A stretch of DNA of 64,000 bases from Medakamo hakoo (lineage: Eukaryota; Chlorophyta; Trebouxiophyceae; Coccomyxaceae): positions 496,001-560,000 of the forward strand of contig CP089454.1 of the NCBI GenBank assembly GCA_026636295.1, given 5' to 3'. Both the position numbers and the translations under genes were made by a program. Below the pieces are notes generated by a model. That model did no database searches, had not been told where the DNA came from, and saw only the letters and a list, made by a program, of their open reading frames with translations. This document shows, one piece after another, positions 958-54,850 of the stretch (position 1 is its first letter; each line of letters starts with the position of its first letter).

Positions 958-1974
958 ATGTGCTGCCGCCGCACCCTCTTCACCGCGCTCCTCATGCTGG
1001 CCGCCGCGGCCGCCGTCGCGGCCGGCGACGCCCCGCCGCCGCCGACCGAACCCGCCAAATCCGAGCTCGTCCCGGAAGCGCTGCAGAAGTCGGGCGCCGA
1101 CGCCGCGAAGCCGGGCGACACCCTGACCGTCGCCAACCCGGCGGGCGACCCCAACCTGCGCGTCGCCTTCTTCGCCAAGGCCGCCAACTTTGAGCCGGGG
1201 GAAGGCAAGCTCATCCTGACCGGCGCGTCTCCACAGGCGCTCATGATCGCCCAAGGCGACGGCATGGAAAACGTGCGGTCCGCCAAGCTGGAAGACATTT
1301 TCGGCGGCGGCAAGCGCCAGGAAAACATGATGCCGCTGTTCGCCAACGCGACGGAAGTGTTGATCGAGGGCAAGCCCGTGCCCTTTGGCAACCGCATCGT
1401 CCTCGTCGTGAAGAACCCTGTGTACACGCAGGCTGGCGGCCGCATCGAGTGGACGGCCAGCTCGCCGCCCAAAGGCCACCTCGGCCTGAAGTCCAACTCG
1501 ATCGCAAAGTCGGCGGCGTCCCTGTCGTCCGAGTCCGTCCTCATCACCGACAAGGAGGCGCGCTCCCCCGTCATCCTGGCCGACGCCGTCATGATCATGA
1601 GCATGTACGTCCCGCACATTTCGGCGGCCATGGCCCTCCAGAAGTCCGCCGCGGAGAAGGCGCCGCCCCAGATCGCCAAGACGCCGCCCGCCACGCCGGA
1701 GTCCAGCAACTTTGCGTCCGCCACCGTGAAGGCCATTGAGAACGCGCCCATTGTCGCGCCATCCACGGGCCGCCGGCTGATGGGCGGGGGGGCCAAAGCA
1801 CCGCCGCCTGTGTGCGGGGTGTGCCAGGTCAAGTCGACGGCGGGCACGTGCGTCGCGCCGCCGCCAAAAGCCCCTAAATGCTTTGGCGAGGTTGGCGCGA
1901 CCGGTTTTTGGGATTGCGGCGTCGGCCAATTCTACACCCAGGACACGTTCATCGGGCACTGCGTGAAAGTGTGA
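958..1974 (+). CDS. Secreted protein of unknown function, Cys-rich C-terminus
   Basis: A single uninterrupted frame of 338 aa starting at the ATG at 958. Residues 1-22 form a clear signal peptide: a short basic start (MCCRR), then a Leu/Ala hydrophobic core ending AAGDA. The body (about residues 45-235) has alternating hydrophobic segments that suggest a beta-rich fold. After a Pro/Ala linker and a GRRLMGG segment (about residue 270), the last 60 residues carry seven cysteines, including a CGVC pair, suggesting disulfide bonds in the secretory pathway or extracellular matrix. I do not recognise the family. Cell-wall or matrix placement is inference from the signal peptide, the linker and the cysteines. 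The next gene, a DNA ligase on the same strand, starts about 680 nt downstream and is functionally unrelated. Confidence 0.75.
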   Translation: MCCRRTLFTALLMLAAAAAVAAGDAPPPPTEPAKSELVPEALQKSGADAAKPGDTLTVANPAGDPNLRVAFFAKAANFEPGEGKLILTGASPQALMIAQGDGMENVRSAKLEDIFGGGKRQENMMPLFANATEVLIEGKPVPFGNRIVLVVKNPVYTQAGGRIEWTASSPPKGHLGLKSNSIAKSAASLSSESVLITDKEARSPVILADAVMIMSMYVPHISAAMALQKSAAEKAPPQIAKTPPATPESSNFASATVKAIENAPIVAPSTGRRLMGGGAKAPPPVCGVCQVKSTAGTCVAPPPKAPKCFGEVGATGFWDCGVGQFYTQDTFIGHCVKV

Positions 1975-2657: not shown

Positions 2658-5003
2658 ATGGCGGCCCGCGGACTCGTGCGTTCAAGTGGTGGGAGTGGTG
2701 GCGGCAGCGTGCGGCAGGGCGCGGCGTGGCGGCCGCCGGCCATGCTGCTGCGCCGCGCGACCACCTCCAGCGCCGTCGCCGCGGGACAGAAAGACGCCGA
2801 GGCCGCCGCCGCGGCTGCGGCAGCCCTGGACCTGTACGACGCCGCCTACTTCAACGAGGGGGCGCCTCTCATCTCCGACGACGCGTACGACTCCCTCAAA
2901 GCCCAGGCCCGCAAGGCCGGCCGCCGGCCTTCTTCCCGTGTTGGCGCACCCCCTCCGTCGACCTCCGCCCTGCCCAAAGCCGCGCACCCGACCCGCCTGC
3001 TGTCCCTGGACGCCGTCCACTCCCGCGAAGAGGCGGAAGCTTGGGGCGCCAAGACTCTGGCGAAGCTGGACACAGCCTCCACCTCCTGGGCCGTCGAACC
3101 GAAGCTCGACGGCTTGGCCGCGCGCTGCACTTTTACAGGCGGCGTGCTGACCGCCGTCGTCACCCGTGGCGACGGGCGGGTCGGGGAAGACGTGACACCC
3201 GCCGCGGCGGGTGGGCGCATTGCAGGCTTGCCACCGGTCCTGTCCAATTCCACGGCGGACGTGGAGGTGCGCGGCGAGGTCTTCATGACGGACGCAGACT
3301 TCGCGTCGGCCAACGCGGCCGCGGCCGCGGCCGGCCTCCCGCCCTTTTCCAACCCGCGCAACCTGGCGGCGGCCACGCTGCGGGCGGCGGCGACGGTGGG
3401 GAGGGGGGACGGCCCGCCCTCAGCCGCCGCCGCCGCCGCAGCGGAGCGCCGCCTGTCCTTCAACGCGTACGAGCTGGTGGTGGCCGGGCGTGGCAGAGGG
3501 GGGCCGGGCGGGGTGGCGGACCCCAACCCGCCGCCGCCGTCCCCGACCCACGCCGCCGCCCTGGCCTGGCTGACGTCCGTGGGCGTCGCCGTCCCGGCCT
3601 CCGCATCCACGCACGCCACGTTTGAATCCGCTTTGGCGGCCGCCCAGGCCTGGATGGCCGGGCGCGAGTCCCTGGGCTTTGCTGTGGACGGGGCGGTGCT
3701 GAAAGCAGACGCGCCGGCCGCGCGCGCTGCGTTGGGCGCGTCGCCCTCCGCGCCACGCTGGGCGGTGGCCTGGAAGTTTCCGGCGACGGAGGCTGTCGCC
3801 ACGCTCACCGCCGTGACGTGGCAGCTGGGCCGGTCGGGCGCGCTCGTGCCCGTGGCGGAGCTGTCGCCGACGGTCGTGGGTGGCGTCACCGTTTCTCGCG
3901 CGTCGCTGCACAACCCGTCCAACGTGCGGGCGTTGGACCTGCGCGTGGGGGACCGGGTCGTGGTGGCTCGGGCGGGGGATGTCGTCCCCCAGGTCGTCCG
4001 CGCTTTGGTGGAAACCCGGACGGGGTCGGAAACGGCGCTGAAGGAGCCGGGCGCGTGCCCGGCGTGCGGTTCGGCGCTCGTCAGCGGAGGCGGCACCAAG
4101 TCCGACGCTCCACCCGCCTCCACCGCCATCGATGACGCGGCCGCGTCCGCCGACGCTTTGCGCTGCGTCAATCGGGCCTGCCCTGGCCGCGCCCTGAAAC
4201 GGGTGCAGCACTTTGCGGCGTGCCTGAGCACGGGCGCGGCGGAACGGCGCGGCGGTGCCTGGGCGGGCGGGCGGGGCGGGACCGACCTGGCGGCGCTGGG
4301 CGGGTTGGGCCCCGCGACGGTGGCGGCCATTGTGGATGCGGGACTAGCGGCCGACGCGGCGGACCTGGTGGGCTTGACGGCTGGCGACTTGGAAGGCCTG
4401 CCCGGCTTTGGCCCGCGCCGGGCGGCCAAAGTTGCGGCCGCGCTGGAGGTTGCTGCCCGGGCCGCCCCTCCCGGCGCTGTGGTTGCGGGCCTGGGCATCC
4501 CAGGCATTGGGCGGGGCGTGGCGGACGCGCTCGTTGCATCGACGGGCAGCTTAGCCGCCCTGGCAGACGCGGCGGCGGACGAGGAGCGGCTGACGGCCGT
4601 CCCCGGGGTCGGCCGGGTGACCGCGGCCGCGCTCGCGCGCTGGTGGGCGGCCGACGACAACGCGGCGTTGGTTGCACGCTTGTTGGCTGCTGGTGTGGGC
4701 ACGGATGTCGTGCAAGCAGCTGCTGCGCCGGCACCGTCGCCGTCCCCATCCCAGCCGTGCGCGGGCGGGACGTTTGTTGTGACCGGCAAGGTTGAGGGCC
4801 TGACCCGCGCGGGCGCGGCCGCGGCGGTGGCCGCGGCCGGTGGCAAAGCTGCCGCGAGTGTGTCGGCTTCCACGACGGCCGTGGTCGCTGGTGCAGCACC
4901 GGGAGCGGCCAAGCTGGCGGCGGCAGAGGCGGCGGGCGTGCCCATCATCCCGGCAGGCGAGTTTTTCGGGGCGGACGGAAAAGTTGTGTGGACGGGCTTG
5001 TAG
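2658..5003 (+). CDS. ligA: NAD+-dependent DNA ligase (LigA type), probably organelle-targeted
   Basis: Single-exon gene of 781 aa that should seal nicks in DNA using NAD+. The domain order is that of bacterial LigA. The NAD+-binding Ia domain is at about residues 55-90 (ISDDAYDSL). The adenylation motif KLDG is at 149-152, with Lys149 the predicted nucleophile. Further motifs include GEVF and NPRNLAAATLR, and an OB fold follows. A four-Cys zinc finger (CPAC ... CVNRAC) lies at about 471-520, then helix-hairpin-helix repeats and a C-terminal BRCT domain (about 700-775). Bacterial LigA is about 670 aa. The excess comes from low-complexity inserts and about 45 extra N-terminal residues that are Arg/Ser/Ala-rich with few acids, suggesting a plastid or mitochondrial transit peptide (inference). 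Eukaryotic ligases are normally ATP-dependent, so a bacterial or organellar origin is likely. Base composition matches the neighbours and the flanking genes are eukaryotic, so contamination is unlikely. Confidence 0.93.
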   Translation: MAARGLVRSSGGSGGGSVRQGAAWRPPAMLLRRATTSSAVAAGQKDAEAAAAAAAALDLYDAAYFNEGAPLISDDAYDSLKAQARKAGRRPSSRVGAPPPSTSALPKAAHPTRLLSLDAVHSREEAEAWGAKTLAKLDTASTSWAVEPKLDGLAARCTFTGGVLTAVVTRGDGRVGEDVTPAAAGGRIAGLPPVLSNSTADVEVRGEVFMTDADFASANAAAAAAGLPPFSNPRNLAAATLRAAATVGRGDGPPSAAAAAAAERRLSFNAYELVVAGRGRGGPGGVADPNPPPPSPTHAAALAWLTSVGVAVPASASTHATFESALAAAQAWMAGRESLGFAVDGAVLKADAPAARAALGASPSAPRWAVAWKFPATEAVATLTAVTWQLGRSGALVPVAELSPTVVGGVTVSRASLHNPSNVRALDLRVGDRVVVARAGDVVPQVVRALVETRTGSETALKEPGACPACGSALVSGGGTKSDAPPASTAIDDAAASADALRCVNRACPGRALKRVQHFAACLSTGAAERRGGAWAGGRGGTDLAALGGLGPATVAAIVDAGLAADAADLVGLTAGDLEGLPGFGPRRAAKVAAALEVAARAAPPGAVVAGLGIPGIGRGVADALVASTGSLAALADAAADEERLTAVPGVGRVTAAALARWWAADDNAALVARLLAAGVGTDVVQAAAAPAPSPSPSQPCAGGTFVVTGKVEGLTRAGAAAAVAAAGGKAAASVSASTTAVVAGAAPGAAKLAAAEAAGVPIIPAGEFFGADGKVVWTGL

Positions 5004-5029: not shown

Positions 5030-6277
5030 TCACGGCGCCGGGTTTGGCCACCGCGCGTGTATCCTGTCGATGGCGGCTAAAAGGTCCGGGTCTAGGGGTC
5101 CGGCCGCCGCGGCGGCTACGGCAGCGTCCAGCTGGTCGAGGCCGGTGACGCCGAGGACGGCCGCGCCGACGAGCGGCCGGCCCAACACCCACCGCAGCGC
5201 GAGCGCGGCTGGGGCCAGGCCGGCTTGGCGGGCGAGCCGGCCGTACGCCGCGACCGCCGCCCGGACGGGCGTCGACGGTCCGTACCGGGCTTCGCCCTCC
5301 GCGTACCTGCCGGCGTACTTGACGAAGCGGGCGGCGGCCGGGCCGTCCCACCAAAAGGTGCGGCCGTCGGCGGCGCGCCTTCGCGCCCCCAGGCCGTACT
5401 TGCCGGTCAACAGCCCGCCCGCCAGCGGGGCGTACGCCAGCAGGGGCACCCCGCCCTCAAAGCACGTCTCGGCGAGCGTGGCGTCAAAGTCGCGGGCGAG
5501 CAAGGAGTACGCGTTCTGGAGGGCGGACACGGGCGGGGACGGGGCGGCCAGGGCGCGGGCCAGGCCCCACGCGCTCTCGTTCGACAGGCCGGCCGCGCGC
5601 ACCTTGCCGTCCCGCACCGCCCGCTCGCACGCTGCCCATGCCTCCTCCACCGGGGCCGCGTCTCCGTACGCCCGGCTCACGTCGTACTCGGTCTCGCCCC
5701 ACAGCGGCACGTACCGGTCGGGCCAGTGCAGGAGGAGGAGGTCCAGGGCGTCCGTCCCCAGGCGGGCCAGGCTGCCCTCCAGCGCGGCCGTGACGCTCCG
5801 CCCGTCCAGGCGGGGCGGCCCGCCCCGCACCCAGGCCATGCCTCCTGGGCCCGACACTTTTGTGATGAGTTGGACGTCATCCCGCCTCTTTCGAGCTTTC
5901 AGCCAGGTGCCCAGTATGGATTCTGCCGCGCCGGCGGTGGTCGGGGATTGGGGGACGGGGTACATCTCGGCGGTGTCGAAGCTCGTCACCCCGCGCTCGA
6001 CGGCAGCACTGCACAGGTTATGCGCGTCTGCCTCGCGTATGCCTTCTCCGAATTGCATTGTGCCCAGGACGAGGCGGGAGAGGGAAAGCGTGGGCAAGAG
6101 CGGCGTGGAGGACGGGAAGGAGGTGTAGGGCGGAGGGAGGCGGGCGGTGGCCAGGTTGGTCGTCGGCCGAGACGGCGCCTTCGGCGGGCCCGCGTGCACA
6201 GAGGCGCATCGTCGGTTGGGTGCGTCGCCCACTCGCCTGGCGGTTTGGGGTCCGCCTGCACTCGCCATGCGAGTCAT
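5030..6277 (-). CDS. Aldo/keto reductase, Tas/At1g04420-like, probably plastid
   Basis: 415 aa from the ATG at 6277; a second in-frame ATG lies at 6268. The catalytic tetrad of the aldo/keto reductase superfamily is complete: Asp101 and Tyr106 (DTAEMYP), Lys140 (LITK) and His184 (HWPDRY). The signature FDTAEMYPVPQ, the KVSGPG segment and WGETEYD match the Tas-like subgroup seen in plants (At1g04420), so it is an NADPH-dependent carbonyl reductase of unknown substrate. About 65 N-terminal residues before LVLGTMQFG are rich in Arg, Pro, Ser and Thr, consistent with a transit peptide. The gene converges on the DNA ligase with only 26 nt between the two stop codons, so their 3' UTRs must overlap. 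No intron is needed. Confidence 0.9.
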   Translation of the reverse strand: MTRMASAGGPQTARRVGDAPNRRCASVHAGPPKAPSRPTTNLATARLPPPYTSFPSSTPLLPTLSLSRLVLGTMQFGEGIREADAHNLCSAAVERGVTSFDTAEMYPVPQSPTTAGAAESILGTWLKARKRRDDVQLITKVSGPGGMAWVRGGPPRLDGRSVTAALEGSLARLGTDALDLLLLHWPDRYVPLWGETEYDVSRAYGDAAPVEEAWAACERAVRDGKVRAAGLSNESAWGLARALAAPSPPVSALQNAYSLLARDFDATLAETCFEGGVPLLAYAPLAGGLLTGKYGLGARRRAADGRTFWWDGPAAARFVKYAGRYAEGEARYGPSTPVRAAVAAYGRLARQAGLAPAALALRWVLGRPLVGAAVLGVTGLDQLDAAVAAAAAGPLDPDLLAAIDRIHARWPNPAP

Positions 6278-6517
6278 CTTGGCATGAGAGCGGGTCGGCG
6301 GGGTTGCAGGGGCGTGACGGAAAACACACAATGAAGCAATTGCCGTCGGCGTGTTGTTTCGCTGTCGCTTCCTCAACCTCGAGAGCGACGCAGCTCCACG
6401 GTCTCCTCTCCCATCCCCTCTGGCTCTTCCGCCCCCGTCCGCCGATTGTTGACGATCCCAACGCTCAAACACACAGCATTTACACCACACACCCCCCCCC
6501 CCCCCTCTCCCTTCTTC

Positions 6518-9500
6518 TCAAAGCTTGCGCATACGCTTTGCCGCGTGCTTCCCCCTCCCCTCCGCCGCCGCTTTGGCAGCAACAATGCCGTGCAGGCCTT
6601 TGGCCGCGGCGACCTGCTTGCTCGGCCGGCGGTTGAGCATCGACCGGTCCATGGGCCAGTACGCGTACGGCTCGACTTTGTTGCCCGACCGGCGGACGTC
6701 GCCCGACGCGCCGCCTTTAGCGGCACGGAAGCGGGCGCCCGTGTGGGCGCGCGAAGACGGCTGACCGGGCTGGGTCGCGGTCGACCGCCCGCCGACGGAA
6801 CGCCCGCCGACCGACCGGCCGCCGGCAGATTTGCCGGACCGCCCGCCCACGGACTTGGCGGCGGTGGAGCGAGGGGGGCCTGGGCGACCACCCCGACCCC
6901 GGCGGACGTCGCCGAAATCGGAGCCCGAGTCGTCGTCGTCGCCGTCGTCTTCAAAGGCGGCCGACCGGCTGCGCTTCCCACCACCGCCTTTGTCCTCATC
7001 CCGGACGACCAGGCGGCCGTCGTCGCCGACCTCAAAGTCCGAGTCCTCGCCATCGGAGGCGCGTCCACGGCCGCCGCGGCCGCCAGCACGGCGGCCGGCC
7101 CCGCGCGCGCCCGCCGCCAGGGCGCGGGCCGCGCCGCCGCCCAGCAGGTCGACCGGGTCGGCGCCAGACCGGTCGCCCGGCAGGGCGCCGCCGCCTCCAC
7201 CGGGCCCGCCCAGCGCCGTGCGCGGCGGCTTGCCCGCTTTCGTGAAGCCGGTGCGGCCGGTGCGCGCAGAAAACAGGGCCGTCGGCGCCCATTCCGAGCG
7301 CGCGCCCGTCTTGCCCGTGCGGGCGGTGCGGCGGTCGTCCTCTCCCTCGCCCTCACCCTCTCCATCCGACCACGGCTCGTCGCCTTCCGCGCCCGCCGCC
7401 TTCTTCCGCGCTTTCCGCGCGCCCTGCTTCCGGATGTGGGCCAGCAGCTTGGCATCCTCGGCCGGCATGGCCGTCGCCACGGCCTCAAACCCAATCCGCC
7501 GTGCCAGGCGTTCGACGATGACGCGCACCTTCAGCCGGAACTTGTTTTTCGGGTCGTCCGACCAGCGCAGGAGGCCGTCGAGCAGCGCGGGCGCGGCGGT
7601 CTCCAGCTCGTTCGCCGGCAGGCGGCCGACACACACTTTGGCAAAGCCCAGGACGGCTTTGATGACTTCCCGGGCGGGCGTGCGGAGGAGGGGCAGGATG
7701 GCGGACAGCAGGCGGCCCGCGTCGCAGCCGAGCGGGCCGGGCACAAAGGCGTGGACCAGGCGGGCGGCGGCCATGGTGGCGGCGGAGACCATGTGCGGGG
7801 AGCCGCCAGCCAGGCCGCCCAGCACCACAGCAAACGTGTCGCGGAGGGCCGTGCCGGGCTCCGCCCCGGGCGGGTCGGCCGCCGGCGACGCCAGGTCGAC
7901 GAGCAGCGCGTACGCGGCCGCGCGCGTCTTGCGGTTGGCTTCCTTCACGCACAGGACGACTTCGGCGACGAGCGTGGCCGCGTCGGACGACTGGGGTCCG
8001 GCGCCCTGGCCTCCACGGGCCCGCAACGCCAGCACCGCTTCCCGGACGACGGCCAGGCGGTGGCGCTTGGCGGCGGGCAGCGTTTTCGGGCCGGCGGCCA
8101 GGAGCGTGCTCAGCAGGCCGCCCAGGCCGTCCGGCCCGTCGCCTTCCAGGAAGTCGGGCCGGCCCACACAGACGGTCGCCAGCAGTTTGTACGCCCGCTT
8201 TTGAACCGCGGGCGCCCGGTCGGTCAGGCCGGGCGCGGCGGCGGCGGCGAGCGCGCGCACGTCTTCGACGGGCAGGCCCGGCGCGAGCGCGAGCGCGGCG
8301 TCCATAAAAGTCACGCGCCGCGCGGCTGGGCTCGTCCCGCCCTGGGCCGCGGTCGTGGGGGGGATGGCACCCTGGTCCGGCGCTGCGGCGTCGCGCGTCG
8401 CGGTCGCGAGCTGGCCCAGCGCCGCGGCGAAATGCTCGCGGACCAGGGCGGGAGGCGCGGCGGACCGGGCATAGGAACCGACCGCGGCCGCGAGCGGCCC
8501 GCGTTCGGGCGGGTCCGCACCCACCAGCGTGTTGAGCAGGAGCGGCAGCCAGTTTTTAGCCTGGGTGGACAAAGCCCTGCGAGTGGCGGCCGCGACGGCG
8601 GGGGTGTACTGCGGCGGCCGCGGGCCGGTGGAGGCACGGGTGGCGGGCGTCGCGGACGGCCGCCCGCCTTCGTCGTCAGAGAGGTCGAGGTCGCTGTCGT
8701 CGGAGAGGGTTGCAGCGCCGCCGCCGCTCTCTCCTTCCTCCGCGCACTGGTCACACAGGCGGACGAGGGCGGCACAGATGGAGGGCCGCAAGTCCGGGCG
8801 GGCGGTGAAGGCGCGGGCGACGTCGCGGGCGTGTGTCCTGCGGTGTGGTGGGGAGGCGTGGATGGGTGAGCACCAGAACACGCGCGGATGGGGGGGAACG
8901 GCTCTGGGCCCCGCGCACACGCGGGCGGAAACCAGGCCTCAGTGGTAGTGACAAAAGAACGTTGGTGTCCGCAGGGACGCCCTCGGTAGAGAGACGCCTC
9001 GGCTCTCAACAACGATAAAGTTTTTCGTGGTGTCTCGTCCTTGGCCTGGATGGACATAAAAAAGCGGCAGCAAAAAAAAAAAACAAATCAAGACGCACTT
9101 TAACGCGTCGCCGCCGTCGACGGCCCAGTTGGCAAACGCGGGCAGAGCCTGCCAGATCTGGAGTTCAAGCGCCCGGGTTTGTAAAGCGCGCAGCCGGTCA
9201 CCGGCAGCGGCCGCGGCGGATGAGCGGCCCCCCATCTCACGGCCGAGCGGCAAGAGGTGCGTGCACCAAAAGGCGAGGCGCGCGCCGCGGACGCCGGTCC
9301 GCAACGCCGGCAGCAACCAGGTGCGCGGGTCGGGCGCGCCGCGCACGCCGTCCAGGGCCGGGCCCAGGCCCAGGGGCAGGATTTCCAGGACGGCTTCCGG
9401 GCCCAGGGCGGCGAGGGCGGCTTGGAGGGCGGCCGCGGCGGGCGCCGCGAAATCGGGCGGCGGCGCGCCCGGGTCGGCTTCGGCCGCGTCGGCCGCGCCA

Positions 9501-11206
9501 GCGCACAGGGCGCCCACCCTGGCGACGAGCGGGGTCAGGGCGGCCACGGCGTCCGGGGAGGGAGGTCCCGCGCTCGCAGCGGCGGTGAAAAGGTCGGCGG
9601 CGGCGGGCAGGGCCGCCGCCCAGCCCGGCCGGGCGCCCGGGCCGAGCGCAGAGACGAGCGTCGCGGCGAGCGCGGCCGCGGGCGGCGGGTGGTGCCGCGC
9701 AGCCCGGCCGCCGGCGGTCGCTGCAGCCGCCGCCGTCACCCCGCCCGCCGTGCCTAGGGCCGCGCGCAATGCCGCCGCGGCAGCAGCACGCACGCCATCC
9801 GAGTCGGAGGCGAGCAGCGGGGCCAGGGCGGCGGCGGCGGAGGGCAAGGCCGCGGCCGCGGCCGGCGGGTCGGCCGCGGCGAGGGCAGCGAGGCCGGCGT
9901 CGAGCGCGGCCGCCGCCGCCGCCAGCGCGTCCGCGTCCCGGCCTTCCCACGCTCCTGGGGCGACGATGAGGCCAGACACTAAGGCCGAGATGTCAGGCGG
10001 GGTCAAGCTCAGGGCTGCCGCGGCTTTGCGGGGAGGGGCCAGCGGGCCGCCGCCGGCCGGCCGCACCGCCTCGGCCAGGAGCGCGCGCAGCGCGTCGGCC
10101 GCGTGCCGGGCCAGCAGTGGGTTGCGCAGGCTGAACAGCGGCAGGATGAGCGGGAGCGCCACGTCTTTGACTGCTGCGGACGCCGGAACGAGCAAAGGCA
10201 GGCCGCCGCGCAACAGGCCGAGGAAGTGGAGCGCGTCCGCGGCCGCCCGGCCGACGGCTTCGTCCGCCGCGGCGCGCGCGGCGGCGCCCGTCGCGCGCGC
10301 CGCGGCCGCGGCCGCCGCCGCTGGCCCCGGCAGCACGCCACCCGCCGCCCGGACGACGGCGTCACTGGCCGCAGTGGCGAGTGGCGTCACGCCTCCCGCC
10401 CGTAAAGCCGCTAAGACCGCGACCGCCCCGCTCACGGCCGCGCGGCGGGCTTTCGGGTTGGGCGCGAGCGCCAGGCCGAGCAGGGTAGAAAACGGTCCCG
10501 CCAGCGCCGCCCACGCGGTCGGGGAGGTGGTGGACGCGGGGTCGGTGGCTGCGGCGGTGAGGAGAGTGGACAAGCAGCTGGCGACGTGGCGCAGGGCGGC
10601 AGGCTGGTGGGATGGTGGGATGTGTGGGGCGTGAGGAAAAAAAGGCCGGGGATGGGAGTGGGGTGGTGGCTGATGCGGGAGGAAAAAAAAGAACGCCGCT
10701 CACGTTTTCGGCCGCGCGCGCGGCGTCGACGGCCGCGCCCAGGACACGCGCGGTCTCGCCAAACCGCGACCGCAGGACGGGAGACGGCACCCGGACCAGG
10801 ACCAGGTCCAGGAGGTGGGCCATGGCGGTGAAGGCCTGTCGGATGAGCGGAGGGGGGAGAGCGCGTGAGGACGACGACGGCTAGGCCGCAGACGCATTGG
10901 GCCGCCGCATACGACGGCACAACAAAGAAGAAACGCCGCCAACGGCCTCTCACCACCCCCTCCCTTCCTCACCTGCGCATCGTCCATGGCACCAGGACCG
11001 TCCAGGGCCACCATGACGGCAGCAAACAACGCGGTGGGTGAGGGCGAGAGCCCACGCGCGGCGACCGCTTCGAGGACGGCGCCGAGCACGCCAACGAGCG
11101 CCCGCGACTCGGCGCCTGGTTTACCCGCGTGGCGACGCAGGATTTCGAGGTGGACGCCGGGCTGTGAGGGGGTGTCTCCACCGTCTAGCGGCGGCGGGCC
11201 CGTCAT
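6518..11206 (-). CDS. RRP12: Ribosomal RNA-processing protein 12 (RRP12-like)
   Basis: Four exons: 11206-10973, 10835-10704, 10603-9099 and 8837-6518, giving 1396 aa (human RRP12 about 1300). All junctions are GT-AG and keep frame. RRP12 is a HEAT-repeat protein that helps export and mature pre-ribosomal subunits. The N-terminal region (AFTAMAHLLDLVLVRVP) and the NUC173 region (DPRTWLLPAL, GARLAFW, LQIWQALP) match the family. Towards the C-terminus come KVRVIVERLARR, then MPAEDAKLLAHIRK and a basic/acidic nuclear tail with repeated GGRSVGGRS units. The protein ends with the typical YAYWPMDRSMLNRRPS motif. The start at 11206 is the first ATG of the open first exon, and an earlier non-coding exon cannot be excluded. 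A C-run lies just past the stop (6492-6505). Confidence 0.92.
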
Positions 11207-11425: not shown

Positions 11426-12107
11426 CTACTCACTGTCGCCCGAGCTGTCCCCTCCACCACCTTCGTCGCCTCCATCCTCCATCGCGGCCAACAGCCTGCT
11501 TGCAAACGCGGCCGCCGCCGCCCGGCGCTCCGCGTCCGGCAAGCCGCGAATGCGGTCCCGGGCGGCGGCGGCTTCGGCCAAGAGGGAGGCAAAGCCGTCG
11601 CCGTCGTCGTCTTGCTCGTCGGCGTCGCCGTTTTCGGGGAGGAGCGAGCGCGGCGCGGTGGCGGTGGCTGCTGGCGCCCCACGGCCGCCACCGGTCACGG
11701 CAGCCTTCCGCACCAGCCCCGGCCACATGTGGGCGGACAGGGCTTCACGCACACGGACGGAGCCTGACGCTTCAGGCGGGCCGGCGTCGTCGGCGTCGTC
11801 GGCGCCAGCGCCCAACAACGCCGCCGCTTCATCCGCTGCGCCCGCGGCCGCTTCCACCCACTCAAACGCGGATTCGGCCGCCCACTCTCCTGCCGGGCCG
11901 TGCCAGGCGGGGCGTGGGGCGTCAACAGGCAGCCGGTCGGCTTTGGTCGCGACGGCCAAGCGGACGGATACGGCGTCCAGGGCCGGGCCGGCGGCGGTGG
12001 CCCAGGCGCGGGCAGCCTGTGGGTGACGACGGAGTTGTTTTGGGCCGGTGGGTGAGGACGCGGGGCGCGCACACCGCCTCCGCAGCGCGCGACACACCCC
12101 TCCCTGC

Positions 12108-12188
<81 letters not shown>

Positions 12189-12571
12189 ACACACACACAC
12201 ACACACACCTCGAAGCTGGCCTCGTCGCCCGAGTCAAAGACGAGGACGACCGCTTCGGCCGTGGAGGCCAAAGCGGGTGGAGAGGAGGCGCTGGAACCGC
12301 CCTCGTCGGCTTCGTGCCCGCCGTCGGCGGCCAAACGAACGCTGGCCAGGTCCACGGTGACCGTGTAGTACTTGGTGTCGAGGCGCCAGGGCGTGCGTGC
12401 GGGCGGCGTGGGCGATGGTGCGGCAGCAGCAGGTTGGGACGCAGCGATGCCTTCGCTGCGCCCCGCCTGGACGAGGCGGTCGATGAGGGCCCGCTTCCCT
12501 ACGCCGGCCGCGCCGAGGACGGCAATGAGCGGGCGGGCCTGCGGCATGGGTGGGGGTGGGTCCGTCGTCAT
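11426..12571 (-). CDS. AAGAB: Alpha- and gamma-adaptin-binding protein p34 (AAGAB)
   Basis: Two exons, 12571-12209 and 12016-11426, encode 317 aa (human AAGAB is 315). The family has an N-terminal Rab-like G-domain fold and acts as an assembly chaperone for AP1 and AP2 clathrin adaptors. Visible features are a P-loop-like GAAGVGKRAL (Arg where a GTPase has Ser/Thr), the WRLDTKYYTV strand and EAVVLVFDS. The diagnostic C-terminal helix is also present (FASLLAEAAAARDRI ... RRAAAAAFASRLL), followed by an acidic tail ending SSGDSE. Met12571 is chosen as the first ATG before LIAVLG; a second is at 12547. The 192-nt intron begins inside a GT repeat and holds a long GA tract. It is divergent from the ARID-ELM2 gene. 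Confidence 0.88.
12111..12208. repeat. Compound microsatellite (TC)n-(CA)n in p34 intron
   Basis: About 75 nt of uninterrupted TC dinucleotide, a few T-rich bases, then about 10 CA units up to 12208. On the transcribed (minus) strand this reads as a GT repeat starting exactly at the 5' splice site, then a long GA tract. Length is likely to vary between strains. Confidence 0.97.
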
Positions 12572-12914
12572 TTGCAACAGTGCGAGGCGTGTTTTCTGTC
12601 CCCCCCTCTCCCTTATCGGCGGTCTGCTGCCTTTCGCCCACCGCCCCCCCTCCCACACAGACCTGCGTTCCCCCGCACGTCGCACGCGGACGCCTGCGCC
12701 GGCCTGGGCACGCCTCCTCGGCCTCGTCCTTCTCTCTCAATTGTCAGGCCGTGTACCTGGCCACCCACCCTCAGGCGGCGGGAGCGTTTCTTGTCGGCTC
12801 TGCAGCGACTGCCGGCGCCAAAAAGCAGGCCATCGGGCCTTCGAAAAAAAAAAACAACTCCGCCGCGGCCGCCCTTCCCCCAGCAAAGCAACAACCGGGC
12901 CGCCCTGAGGAAAT
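12572..12914. promoter_or_regulatory. Divergent promoter region, p34 / ARID-ELM2 genes
   Basis: 343 nt between the start codons of two divergent genes. The sequence is C-rich near 12600-12660 and has an A-run at 12844-12853. No TATA box or known motif stands out. Promoter function is inferred from gene orientation only. Confidence 0.4.
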
Positions 12915-52927: not shown

Positions 52928-54607
52928 TCACTGGCCGCCCGCGTCGTCGTTCACGCCCCAGTCGTACGGCGCGTACGCGACGCGCACCCGGTCCACCCGC
53001 CCGCCGGCCGCCTGCACCACTCGGTCCAGGGCCGCCGCCTTGTCCGGCGGCAAGAAGGGCGCCAGCCAGGCCAGGACGCACGTCCCTGGCGGGAAGTCGC
53101 GGGCGTACCATTTGAAAATGGACGAGAGCGTGACGGTCCGCGCGCCCTCGTCGACGGAAAACGCGTCGTCGCCCTCGACAAAGGCGGCGACGGCCGCGTC
53201 CAGGGCCGCGTCCAGGCCGCTCGCCCCGTAGACGCGGACGGGCGGGCAGGACTTGGCGCCGCACACCAGGGCGGCGTGGATGCGCGGGTCGACGGGCGGG
53301 GGCAGCGTGAGAGCGGCGCGCGGGTCGCCGCCCTTGAAGTGCGTCGCGCCCGGCCACCGCACCAGGCCGGCCAGGCTGCCGGGGGAGGGGGCATTGCACC
53401 GCAACACCCCGTGCTCCAGGTCGTCAGGCGAGAAGGCGGGCAGGCCGCGGCCCAACAGATAACCGGGCGCGCCGAAGAAGCGGGCGCGCGCGGGCGGGCT
53501 GTCAGCCGGCGGGCCCCGCTCCGCCGTCGCGTGAATGATCAGCGCGTTGTACAGGTTGATCACCAACGCCGTGCGGTCCGGGCGGGCGGGCAGGTCCGCC
53601 GCGTCGCCACACGCCTGGAGCTCGGACGTGGCGAGGGCAAAGTCCGTGAAGGCCGGGTCGGACGCCAGGGACGCATAGTTGACGCCCCGCCCGCCGGCCG
53701 CCAGGTGTCTGTCGTACAGGCGCAGGATGCGGGCCCGCAGGCCGGCCGCCACCGCCGCTGCCGGCCGGGCGGGGCCCAGCCAGGCAAAGCGGGCGTTGAG
53801 CGGGGCGGGGGGCGGGGACGGGGCCGCCGCCCGCACGAGCAGGAGGGGCGTGGCGGCCGGGCAGGCAGACAGGCGGGGGACGGGCGCCGCCGCGTCAAAC
53901 CCGGGCGGGGCGGCGCCGCACGGGAAGGAGAGCAGGCGGGCGGCCGCCAGGGCGTCGAGCGTGGTGCCAGGTTCGCCTGCGGTGTCCAGCCACGCCGACG
54001 CGGCGCCCACCGTGAAAGCCGCGCCCAGGCCGGTCGCCAGGCCGGCCGCGGTTTGTTCCAGGCGCGCGAGGTCGGCCGCACCCAGGCCGCTGCCCGCGAT
54101 GGGTGGCGGCGGGCCGGCGTCCGGGACGGCCGCCGCGGCCGCCGCGTTTTTGCTGTCTCCGAGAGCGTCCACGATGGCCGGCGGCAGCGGCGCCTTGCCC
54201 GCCGCGGCAGCGACAGCGCCCGCGAGCGTGCCGGCTTCCAGCGCGGCGACCGCCTCGTCCGCCCCGCCGAGCAGCGCGCCCGCGATGAACACCTGGGGCA
54301 CGGTCGCCCGCCCGGACGCGGCCTTGACGGCGGCGAGGGCACCGGGCGCCGCGCCCAGGTCGTATTCTGCGTACGGAATGCCCGCCTCTGACAGGGCTGC
54401 TTTCGCTTTCGCGCAAAAACGGCAGCCGGCCTGCGCACGCGTGGGTTTGGACAGGGGGGGGGGGGGGGGGCGTGAGGTGTGGTCGCACCGTGTGGAAAGG
54501 CGCGCCGTCCGTGCAGTTTGCTTCCTTTCCCTCACCGTGGTGATGATGGCTACAGCAGGCGTGGACGGACCGCTTTCATCAGCTGCAACCGCACGGGTGG
54601 GCGGCAT
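52928..54607 (-). CDS. Glutaredoxin-DUF547 fusion protein
   Basis: Two exons, 54607-54536 and 54430-52928, phase 0, 524 aa. The intron falls inside the glutaredoxin strand, so splicing restores VAIITTAGCRFCAKAKAALS. The active site is Cys-Arg-Phe-Cys, a dithiol type, and GRATVPQVFIAGALLGGADE carries the cis-Pro and the glutathione-binding GG. The middle region (about 110-255) is Ala-rich. The C-terminal half is DUF547: RTALVINLYNALIIHAT and FFGAPGYLLGRG, followed by DLEHGVLRCNAPSPG, DPRIHAALVCGAKSCPP and IFKWYARDFPPG. DUF547 resembles transglutaminase-like Cys proteases, and the CGAKSCPP cysteines and nearby His may be catalytic, though function is unknown. Fusions of glutaredoxin to DUF547 are seen in other algae (from memory). 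No targeting signal is evident. The 105-nt intron has a long C tract. Confidence 0.87.
   Translation of the reverse strand: MPPTRAVAADESGPSTPAVAIITTVRERKQTARTARLSTRCDHTSRPPPPPLSKPTRAQAGCRFCAKAKAALSEAGIPYAEYDLGAAPGALAAVKAASGRATVPQVFIAGALLGGADEAVAALEAGTLAGAVAAAAGKAPLPPAIVDALGDSKNAAAAAAVPDAGPPPPIAGSGLGAADLARLEQTAAGLATGLGAAFTVGAASAWLDTAGEPGTTLDALAAARLLSFPCGAAPPGFDAAAPVPRLSACPAATPLLLVRAAAPSPPPAPLNARFAWLGPARPAAAVAAGLRARILRLYDRHLAAGGRGVNYASLASDPAFTDFALATSELQACGDAADLPARPDRTALVINLYNALIIHATAERGPPADSPPARARFFGAPGYLLGRGLPAFSPDDLEHGVLRCNAPSPGSLAGLVRWPGATHFKGGDPRAALTLPPPVDPRIHAALVCGAKSCPPVRVYGASGLDAALDAAVAAFVEGDDAFSVDEGARTVTLSSIFKWYARDFPPGTCVLAWLAPFLPPDKAAALDRVVQAAGGRVDRVRVAYAPYDWGVNDDAGGQ
54454..54470. repeat. 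17-nt poly-G run (pyrimidine tract on coding strand)
   Basis: Read on the minus strand this is a C17 tract lying about 23 nt before the acceptor of the glutaredoxin-DUF547 intron, so it probably serves as the polypyrimidine tract. Confidence 0.95.
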
Positions 54608-54688
54608 GGGCGTGGGCCGGCGCAGCGCCGTCCACGTCGGTTGCGGCTCAATGCCTGGCCGCGCGCGGGCGACGGGCCGACGACGGGC

Positions 54689-54760
54689 CGTGCTCGCCAC
54701 GCACGCAGGACTGTGGGCGTGCGCCGTGCTCGTCACGTACGCAGGACTGTGGGCGTGCGC
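54689..54760. repeat. Tandem 36-nt direct repeat, two copies
   Basis: Two adjacent 36-nt copies (54689-54724 and 54725-54760) differ at two positions; both contain GCAGGACTGTGGGCGTGCGC. They lie in the 243-nt gap upstream of the glutaredoxin-DUF547 start and downstream of the next minus-strand gene. Confidence 0.93.
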
Positions 54761-54850
54761 GGAGAGCCCGCGCATCAGCAGGAGGCGAAGGTGACGGGGC
54801 GTCGCCGGCCGTGTCGGGTTTCTTGGGAGTAAACACCACCCCTCCATCAT

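What the first reader, a model, noticed from the sequence alone, without database searches (positions are those of the whole stretch)
2658..5003. Bacterial-type NAD+-dependent DNA ligase encoded in a eukaryotic nuclear genome
The gene has the full LigA domain set (Ia, KLDG adenylation site, OB fold, Cys4 zinc finger, helix-hairpin-helix, BRCT) and an extra basic N-terminus of about 45 residues. Nuclear eukaryotic genomes normally encode only ATP-dependent ligases. The surrounding genes are clearly eukaryotic and the gene shares their GC content and compact spacing, so contamination is unlikely. An organelle-targeted enzyme acquired by transfer, or from the plastid ancestor, would mean an unusual NAD+-linked repair or replication step in an organelle.
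Basis: partly seen in the sequence, partly recalled or inferred. Interest (0 to 1): 0.82.

Follow-up and report, generated by a model that had tools for sequence, protein, structure and literature searches.

The report
Bacterial-type DNA ligase in green algae
A tiny green alga appears to carry in its nuclear DNA a bacterial-style, NAD+-using DNA-joining enzyme; related genes turn up in other green algae, liverworts and a moss, so it looks like an old inherited green-lineage enzyme that may repair or copy DNA in the chloroplast or mitochondrion.

Summary
Window 2658-5003 (+) is one open 781-codon LigA frame: NCBIfam LigA 468 bits, cut-off 369; catalytic Lys149 aligned. The genome matches Medakamo hakoo. 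It holds one PF01653 match, a LIG1 and a second ATP ligase frame. Neighbours include RRP12 and an adaptin-binding protein.

It is not an isolated transfer. Homologues are encoded by 10 named green-lineage species. In a 66-row mixture-model tree the 16 rows taken as eukaryotic (window, 8 named species, 7 unnamed) form one group at 100/100, split into bryophytes (100/100) and chlorophytes (100/98). I infer one acquisition before those lines parted, then vertical descent with losses. The donor is unresolved: cyanobacteria are not nearest but not rejected (p-AU 0.223); alphaproteobacteria, thinly sampled, are (p 0.00044).

Best reading: an organelle-targeted, NAD+-dependent nick-sealing ligase, plastid most likely, mitochondrial or dual possible. 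Location and activity are inferred. A new member of a known family with an unexpected distribution; I found no description of it in the open papers searched.

The parts
2658..5003 (+). ligA, NAD+-dependent DNA ligase, 781 aa, one open frame without intron
2658..2810 (+). N-terminal extension, about residues 1-51, basic; residues 1-40 have pLDDT under 50; putative organelle presequence
   Evidence: function inferred
2742..2744 (+). second in-frame ATG (Met29, MLLRRATTSSAVAAG...), possible alternative start
   Evidence: sequence; use not tested
2811..2933 (+). domain Ia, residues about 52-92, with Y64, D74, Y77, D78
   Evidence: alignments; Pfam Nlig-Ia not reported
2964..3785 (+). adenylation domain PF01653, residues 103-376
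3102..3104 (+). Lys149 codon, adenylation nucleophile (EPKLDG)
   Evidence: alignment to E. coli LigA
3798..4028 (+). OB-fold domain PF03120, residues 381-457
4056..4181 (+). Cys4 region, C467/C470/C503/C508 with a long inner loop
   Evidence: alignments; Pfam ZBD not reported
4302..4673 (+). helix-hairpin-helix domain, residues about 549-672
4749..4964 (+). BRCT domain, residues 698-769
   Evidence: 9vse_A, E 5.8e-10; Pfam BRCT not reported
5030..6490 (-). neighbour: aldo/keto reductase, convergent with ligA
   Evidence: PF00248 212 bits
6518..10573 (-). neighbour: RRP12-like HEAT protein in two frames
   Evidence: PF08161 78 bits and PF25772 51 bits in one frame; 19 bits, under cut-off, in the other
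11426..12685 (-). neighbour: alpha/gamma-adaptin-binding protein p34-like
   Evidence: PF10199 41 bits

Best explanation
The gene encodes a NAD+-dependent DNA ligase of the LigA family that belongs to an old nuclear gene lineage of green plants. The green ancestor, before chlorophytes and the line to land plants parted, acquired it once from a bacterium; it then passed down vertically and was lost in many lines. The protein is made in the cytosol, carries a basic, acid-poor N-terminal extension and is probably imported into an organelle, most likely the plastid, perhaps also or instead the mitochondrion. There it would use NAD+ to put AMP on Lys149 (domain Ia binding the NMN half), pass the AMP to the 5' phosphate of a nick and seal it, finishing replication and repair of organelle DNA, while LIG1 and a second ATP ligase serve the nucleus. 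Shown: gene, domains, catalytic residues, nuclear context, one match in the genome, grouping with green-lineage LigA. Inferred: import, compartment, activity, losses, division of labour. The reaction steps are recalled textbook LigA chemistry.
For: LigA profile match and residues; fold. One PF01653 match in the own genome; ATP-ligase frames on C3 (A_N 163, A_M 174, A_C 69 bits) and C9. Eukaryotic neighbours. Codon usage: RSCU correlation of ligA with 8 other frames 0.605-0.937; the other pairs 0.663-0.963, mean 0.843 (two of the 8 frames have no Pfam match, and are unproven genes). Homologues: 11 unnamed proteins at 45-70% identity and 496-942 bits, then 351 bits and below; named Edaphochlamys, Calypogeia, Volvox africanus, Chlamydomonas schloesseri, Pleodorina, two Marchantia, two Riccia and Physcomitrium. 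Trees: group of 19 rows SH 1.0 of 95; group of 16 rows 100/100 of 66, bryophytes 100/100, chlorophytes 100/98. N-termini: in 14 eukaryotic proteins that I chose as full-length (3 of them unnamed), 0-4 D/E in the first 50 residues, against 6-15 in 12 chosen bacterial ones (the bacterial first 50 residues include domain Ia, so the contrast is partly trivial). Precedent: a nuclear Paulinella ligA with a chromatophore-targeting signal that its authors infer to be imported (PMC7826189, passages).
Against: No transcript, protein, localisation or activity data were available, and no targeting predictor. The maximal N-terminal helical moment is not raised: 0.27 here, 0.27-0.44 in the 14 eukaryotic proteins, 0.38-0.52 in the 12 bacterial ones. 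By plain scores the link to the named green proteins is not visible: one search lists none of them in its best 120, and bacterial rows (up to 500 bits) outscore Edaphochlamys (475) and Calypogeia (472); the grouping rests on the trees and. The sister group is unresolved. Many rows, eukaryotic ones first, have odd composition (warning). LIG1 may do the job: C. merolae sends its single ligase to plastid and mitochondrion, AtLIG6 has a putative plastid peptide, and the ligase row of a table, seen in a passage, gives plastid predictions for LIG1 entries that I take to be those of the moss and of a green alga (PMC4166229). Seeing this again on recheck I lowered this confidence from 0.70 to 0.65 and the novel case from 0.35 to 0.30.
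Confidence: 0.65

Rival explanations
1. The same inherited enzyme, but working in the mitochondrion rather than the plastid, or equally in both through two start codons.
For: Met29 begins MLLRRATTSSAVAAG, and three of the four volvocine N-termini begin MRRHV or MRRLL, presequence-like by eye only. Published LIG1 cases use two start codons for two places (PMC4166229, passages).
Against: The named eukaryotic members listed are all of the plastid-bearing green lineage; the alphaproteobacterial grouping is rejected (p 0.00044), though origin need not decide location.
Confidence: 0.3
2. A nuclear or cytosolic backup ligase with no organelle role; the N-terminal extension is a disordered tail.
For: The extension has low pLDDT and its sequence differs between close relatives.
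Against: Few acidic residues in the N-termini of the 14 eukaryotic proteins examined; two ATP-dependent ligase frames are already present.
Confidence: 0.15
3. A recent bacterial transfer private to this alga, or bacterial contamination of the assembly.
For: Bacterial family; no intron in the frame.
Against: Homologues across chlorophytes and bryophytes in one group; codon usage; eukaryotic genes on the same contig; the authors report PacBio reads, 246.8x coverage and telomere-flanked contigs (PMC9871001, sections 8 and 21). I did not see reads, nor the ends of contig C7.
Confidence: 0.03
4. As to origin: a cyanobacterial gene moved to the nucleus from the plastid ancestor, with its signal eroded by time and composition.
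For: Holding eukaryotes and cyanobacteria together is not rejected: lnL 12.49 lower, p-AU 0.223; with bryophytes as the only eukaryotes, p-AU 0.253.
Against: The best trees put cyanobacteria far away; in the bryophyte-only tree bryophytes join a Chloroflexota/Rubricoccaceae-type set at 95/90.
Confidence: 0.3

Closest known systems
Bacterial LigA (E. coli, Thermus and other solved structures)
   Same: Domain order Ia, NTase, OB, Cys4, HhH, BRCT; catalytic Lys; best sequence and Foldseek matches
   Different: Nuclear eukaryotic gene, N-terminal extension, longer inner Cys4 loop. A BRCT GxxxGxxK stretch of 8 rather than 7 residues in 17 of 19 eukaryotic rows, against 0 of 21 cyanobacterial, 6 of 43 bacterial and 2 of 12 viral rows, by a crude regular expression with at least one mis-hit
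Nuclear LigA of bryophytes and volvocine algae (database entries named DNA ligase (NAD+), hypothetical or uncharacterised)
   Same: One group, same domains, N-terminal extension
   Different: 35-42% identical to the window protein in the 8 compared; in the bryophyte proteins the Ia motif lies at residue 342-844, so extensions of roughly 300-800 residues
Paulinella ligA inferred by its authors to be imported into the chromatophore (PMC7826189, passages)
   Same: Nuclear-encoded LigA for a photosynthetic organelle
   Different: Separate endosymbiosis; its sequence was not at hand, relation untested
LigA-like ORFs in Ulva and Bryopsidales chloroplast genomes (PMC4388391, PMC10151680, passages)
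   Same: NAD-dependent ligase in a green algal plastid
   Different: Encoded in plastid DNA and treated as foreign sequence in PMC10151680; relation untested
LIG1 (ATP-dependent) of plants and red algae
   Same: Role in organelles reported or predicted (PMC4166229, PMC3914683, passages)
   Different: Other subfamily, uses ATP; the alga has its own copy on C3
LigA of nucleocytoplasmic large DNA viruses (PMC2806865, passages)
   Same: NAD+-dependent ligase in a eukaryotic setting
   Different: 12 of the 80 IMG/VR loci kept were put in the tree and none joined the green group; whether any is a giant virus was not checked

Membership tests
NAD+-dependent DNA ligase LigA | Adenylation domain with KxDG lysine | tested here: met
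   PF01653 167 bits; Lys149 aligned to the E. coli KLDG lysine
NAD+-dependent DNA ligase LigA | Domain Ia residues that bind NMN (E. coli Y22, H23, D32, Y35, D36; numbers and role recalled) | tested here: met
   Y64, F65, D74, Y77, D78 by alignment: four of five identical, His replaced by Phe; Pfam Nlig-Ia not reported
NAD+-dependent DNA ligase LigA | OB fold | tested here: met
   PF03120 92 bits
NAD+-dependent DNA ligase LigA | Cys4 zinc finger | tested here: met
   four cysteines aligned, inner loop longer; Pfam ZBD not reported
NAD+-dependent DNA ligase LigA | HhH and BRCT at the C end | tested here: met
   PF14520 and PF12826; BRCT by the 9vse_A match, Pfam BRCT not reported
NAD+-dependent DNA ligase LigA | Nick sealing with NAD+ as cofactor | not testable with these tools
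   needs an assay
Green-lineage nuclear LigA group | Groups with bryophyte and volvocine LigA apart from bacteria | tested here: met
   100/100, SH 1.0
Organelle-targeted replication or repair enzyme | N-terminal presequence and organelle location | tested here: inconclusive
   extension present and acid-poor; helical moment not raised; no predictor or localisation
Gene derived from the plastid ancestor | Groups with cyanobacteria | tested here: inconclusive
   not in the best tree; not rejected, p-AU 0.223 and 0.253
Gene derived from the mitochondrial ancestor | Groups with alphaproteobacteria | tested here: not met
   p-AU 0.00044, with only two alphaproteobacterial rows and one viral row that joins them

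The most novel reading that the evidence does not exclude
This is the missing plastid DNA ligase of the green lineage: a NAD+-dependent LigA gained once by the common ancestor of green plants, kept as the organelle ligase in chlorophytes and bryophytes, and replaced in vascular plants by a retargeted ATP ligase, which would tie plastid DNA sealing to the organelle NAD+ pool in the lines that kept it.
Probability: 0.3. Interest if true: 0.78.

Novelty: new member of a known kind. Interest (0 to 1): 0.6.

Why it matters
A review and a study of organelle replication say that the enzyme sealing plastid DNA in plants is unclear (PMC4166229, PMC3914683, passages), and a plant repair review says NAD+-dependent ligases are identified only in eubacteria (PMC6728418, passage). 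A conserved nuclear LigA in algae, liverworts and a moss gives that question a concrete candidate, testable in model plants such as Marchantia and Physcomitrium, and would show a bacterial-type replication-core enzyme surviving through much of green-plant history.

Tried and rejected
Isolated transfer or contamination: rejected on distribution, trees, neighbours and codon usage. Alphaproteobacterial origin: rejected by the AU test on thin sampling. Cyanobacterial origin: neither shown nor rejected, also with bryophytes as the only eukaryotes. Viral origin: not fully tested. One search found 310 stretches encoding a relative and kept 80; 12 of these were in the 95-row tree and none joined the green group. 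One search gave 6 further or overlapping loci, not put in a tree.

Led nowhere: a regular-expression count of the Cys4-HhH linker missed many rows and is not used. The sample meant for Pseudomonadota returned the pool (58 of 59 genomes shared), because the genome used as centre, labelled Tatlockia, evidently belongs to the same phylum as Calothrix; its LigA lies inside cyanobacteria. The weak PF01068 place on C4 was not identified; the frame I scanned from that locus matched no Pfam family and may be the wrong strand. Whether the unnamed close homologues sit beside eukaryotic genes could not be checked, as no metagenome scans were allowed. The status of Chlamydomonas reinhardtii, vascular plants and streptophyte algae is unknown beyond their absence from the 120 rows listed in each.

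Rows dropped: one search uses 66 of the 95 rows. I left out 11 viral rows, one divergent row of the cyanobacterial-phylum sample (G078), 3 unnamed rows of the green group and 14 bacterial or cyanobacterial rows. One search uses 54 rows. Of the 23 loci I used 18 (not L147, L150-L153); of the 28 new loci. P0006, P0011, P0226, P0227, P0229, P0230, P0231, P0234 and P0236 were in no tree (fragments, isoforms, near copies).

Full report
WHERE IT IS. The window is G000:C7:496001-560000 of an assembly of 15,638,232 bases in 16 contigs, about 73% GC in the window. TTAGGG repeats on contig 1 reach at least 1,473,231. The Medakamo hakoo genome paper gives 16 telomere-flanked nuclear contigs, 72.7% GC and a longest contig of 1,473,234 bases (PMC9871001; outline with abstract, passages, sections 8 and 21). 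I take the genome to be M. hakoo, a Trebouxiophyte; no tool named it. The word ligase does not occur in the main text of that paper. The ends of contig C7 were not seen, as the list was cut.

THE GENE. The frame 2658-5003 (+) codes 781 residues. It scores 468.3 bits to NCBIfam LigA NF005932 (cut-off 369) and 447.1 to TIGR00575 (cut-off 444.45). Pfam finds adenylation, OB and HhH domains. Alignment to E. coli LigA puts Lys149 on the catalytic KLDG lysine. D151, G152, E207, R234, R242, K349, K373 and R392 are invariant in a 47-sequence alignment; K149 and R438 are kept in at least 90% (catalytic roles are recalled). The four cysteines are kept, with 32 residues between the second and third. Pfam models for Ia, the Cys4 finger and BRCT were not reported for this protein; bryophyte members match BRCT and come near or reach the Ia cut-off. 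The AlphaFold2 model has mean pLDDT 83.2 and pTM 0.70, with residues 1-40 under 50. The best Foldseek matches are NAD+-dependent ligases, at high rmsd over the whole chain (13-25 for the five best after the first, 15 for the first), so domain placement is not reproduced or not predicted.

RESIDENT GENE. The convergent neighbour is an aldo/keto reductase; beyond it lie RRP12-type HEAT and adaptin-binding p34 domains, eukaryotic families by recall. The upstream frame 958-1974 (+) matched no Pfam family. GC3 of ligA is 0.839 against 0.825-0.923 for eight other frames, and its codon-usage correlations (0.605-0.937) lie within the spread of the other pairs (0.663-0.963) apart from the one at 0.605. 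PF01653 gives one match in the genome. PF01068 gives four matches at three places: LIG1 on C3, a second ligase frame on C9 with A_N and A_M domains and a zinc knuckle, and a weak place on C4. The LIG1 frame of 878 codons has its ligase N domain at residue 245; where its protein starts, and whether an upstream exon exists, was not settled.

RELATIVES. A search with residues 51-781 gave 888 proteins from 7992 scored candidates, 120 listed; the first 11 (P0002-P0012) have 45-70% identity and 496-942 bits, the next 351 bits. None of the 11 bears an organism name. Six of them (P0004, P0005, P0006, P0008, P0009, P0010) begin at or a little before MLSLDS, two of these after residues that read like an intron end, which suggests spliced genes cut by a prokaryotic gene caller (inference). 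A profile of the 12 gave 1643 proteins, 120 listed, with the first named eukaryotes: Edaphochlamys debaryana (475 bits) and the liverwort Calypogeia fissa (472 bits), both below the best bacterial rows (up to 500 bits). A six-row profile that included these two gave 7395 proteins from 7999 candidates; among the 120 listed are Riccia sorocarpa, R. fluitans, Marchantia paleacea, M. polymorpha, Physcomitrium patens (three rows), Volvox africanus, Chlamydomonas schloesseri and Pleodorina starrii, at 657 bits or more; the next row, P0185, unnamed and among bacteria in the trees, has 656. That makes 10 named species. No vascular plant is named among the listed rows, which is weak evidence of absence because lists are cut and candidates limited.

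TREES. A 95-row FastTree (668 columns) gave one group of the 19 rows that I took as eukaryotic (window, 8 named species, 10 unnamed) with SH 1.0. A 66-row tree under LG+C20 PMSF (667 columns) gave 16 such rows (window, 8 named, 7 unnamed) on one side of a branch at 100/100, bryophytes 100/100, chlorophytes 100/98, and 14 rows counted as cyanobacterial, among them the one labelled Tatlockia, as another group at 100/100. The inner order matches that of the organisms, so I infer one acquisition before the chlorophyte-streptophyte split and vertical descent. The root is a midpoint, and the attachment among bacteria is unresolved. Holding eukaryotes and cyanobacteria together costs 12.49 log units, p-AU 0.223; with two alphaproteobacteria and the viral row beside them 52.69 units, p-AU 0.00044. 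With bryophytes as the only eukaryotes (54 rows) they joined a Chloroflexota/Rubricoccaceae-type set at 95/90, and cyanobacteria were still not rejected, p-AU 0.253. Many rows have unusual composition, which the models do not fully handle.

WHERE IT WORKS. The 14 eukaryotic proteins that I chose as full-length carry an extension before domain Ia (Ia motif at residue 72-844, against 30-69 in 12 chosen bacterial proteins) and 0-4 acidic residues in the first 50, against 6-15. Part of this contrast is trivial, since the bacterial first 50 residues lie in domain Ia. The maximal helical moment is not raised. So an organelle presequence is plausible, not shown, and plastid versus mitochondrion cannot be told here. 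I favour the plastid because the named eukaryotic members listed are green plants and algae and because a Paulinella LigA is inferred to be imported into its chromatophore (PMC7826189, passages). Against a need for LigA stand the LIG1 enzymes reported or predicted for plastids (PMC4166229, PMC3914683, passages).

WHAT IS IN PRINT. Yutin and Koonin note NAD-dependent ligases only sporadically in eukaryotic genomes (PMC2806865, passages). Moriyama and Sato and co-authors treat LIG1 as the organelle ligase and call the plastid enzyme of Arabidopsis unclear (PMC4166229, PMC3914683, passages). Ulva and Bryopsidales plastomes carry LigA-like ORFs (PMC4388391, PMC10151680, passages). The Marchantia plastid proteome preprint and an organelle protein atlas do not mention a DNA ligase in the passages found in their main texts (PMC13419835, PMC11135702); their supplements were not open to me. 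Complete lists: (NAD-dependent DNA ligase with Physcomit-) found 0 papers, searches found 3 each. Capped lists: searches showed 20, 20, 20, 5 and 15 of 1600, 6038, 412, 3666 and 238 papers. None of the listed titles or abstracts deals with this nuclear group. The library holds open-licence papers only, and database entries already bear the automatic name DNA ligase (NAD+), so the claim is only that I found no description.

Noticed in passing
window 12110-12185: Perfect CT dinucleotide run, 38 copies, inside the frame of the adaptin-binding protein gene; perhaps an intron microsatellite.
   Followed up: partly
window 6518-10573 (-): RRP12-like gene split between two frames near 8930, with HEAT profile positions 34-211 in one and a weak 216-285 in the other; an intron between them is likely.
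   Followed up: partly
window 52928-54850 (-): Glutaredoxin domain joined to DUF547 in one frame.
   Followed up: no
L133 (genome of L057): A MAG labelled Tatlockia carries a LigA that lies inside the cyanobacterial group, and its phylum sample is the one of Calothrix; the label looks wrong.
   Followed up: partly
G000:C9:562075-563964: Second ATP-ligase frame of 1540 codons with A_N and A_M domains and a CCHC zinc knuckle; not identified further.
   Followed up: no
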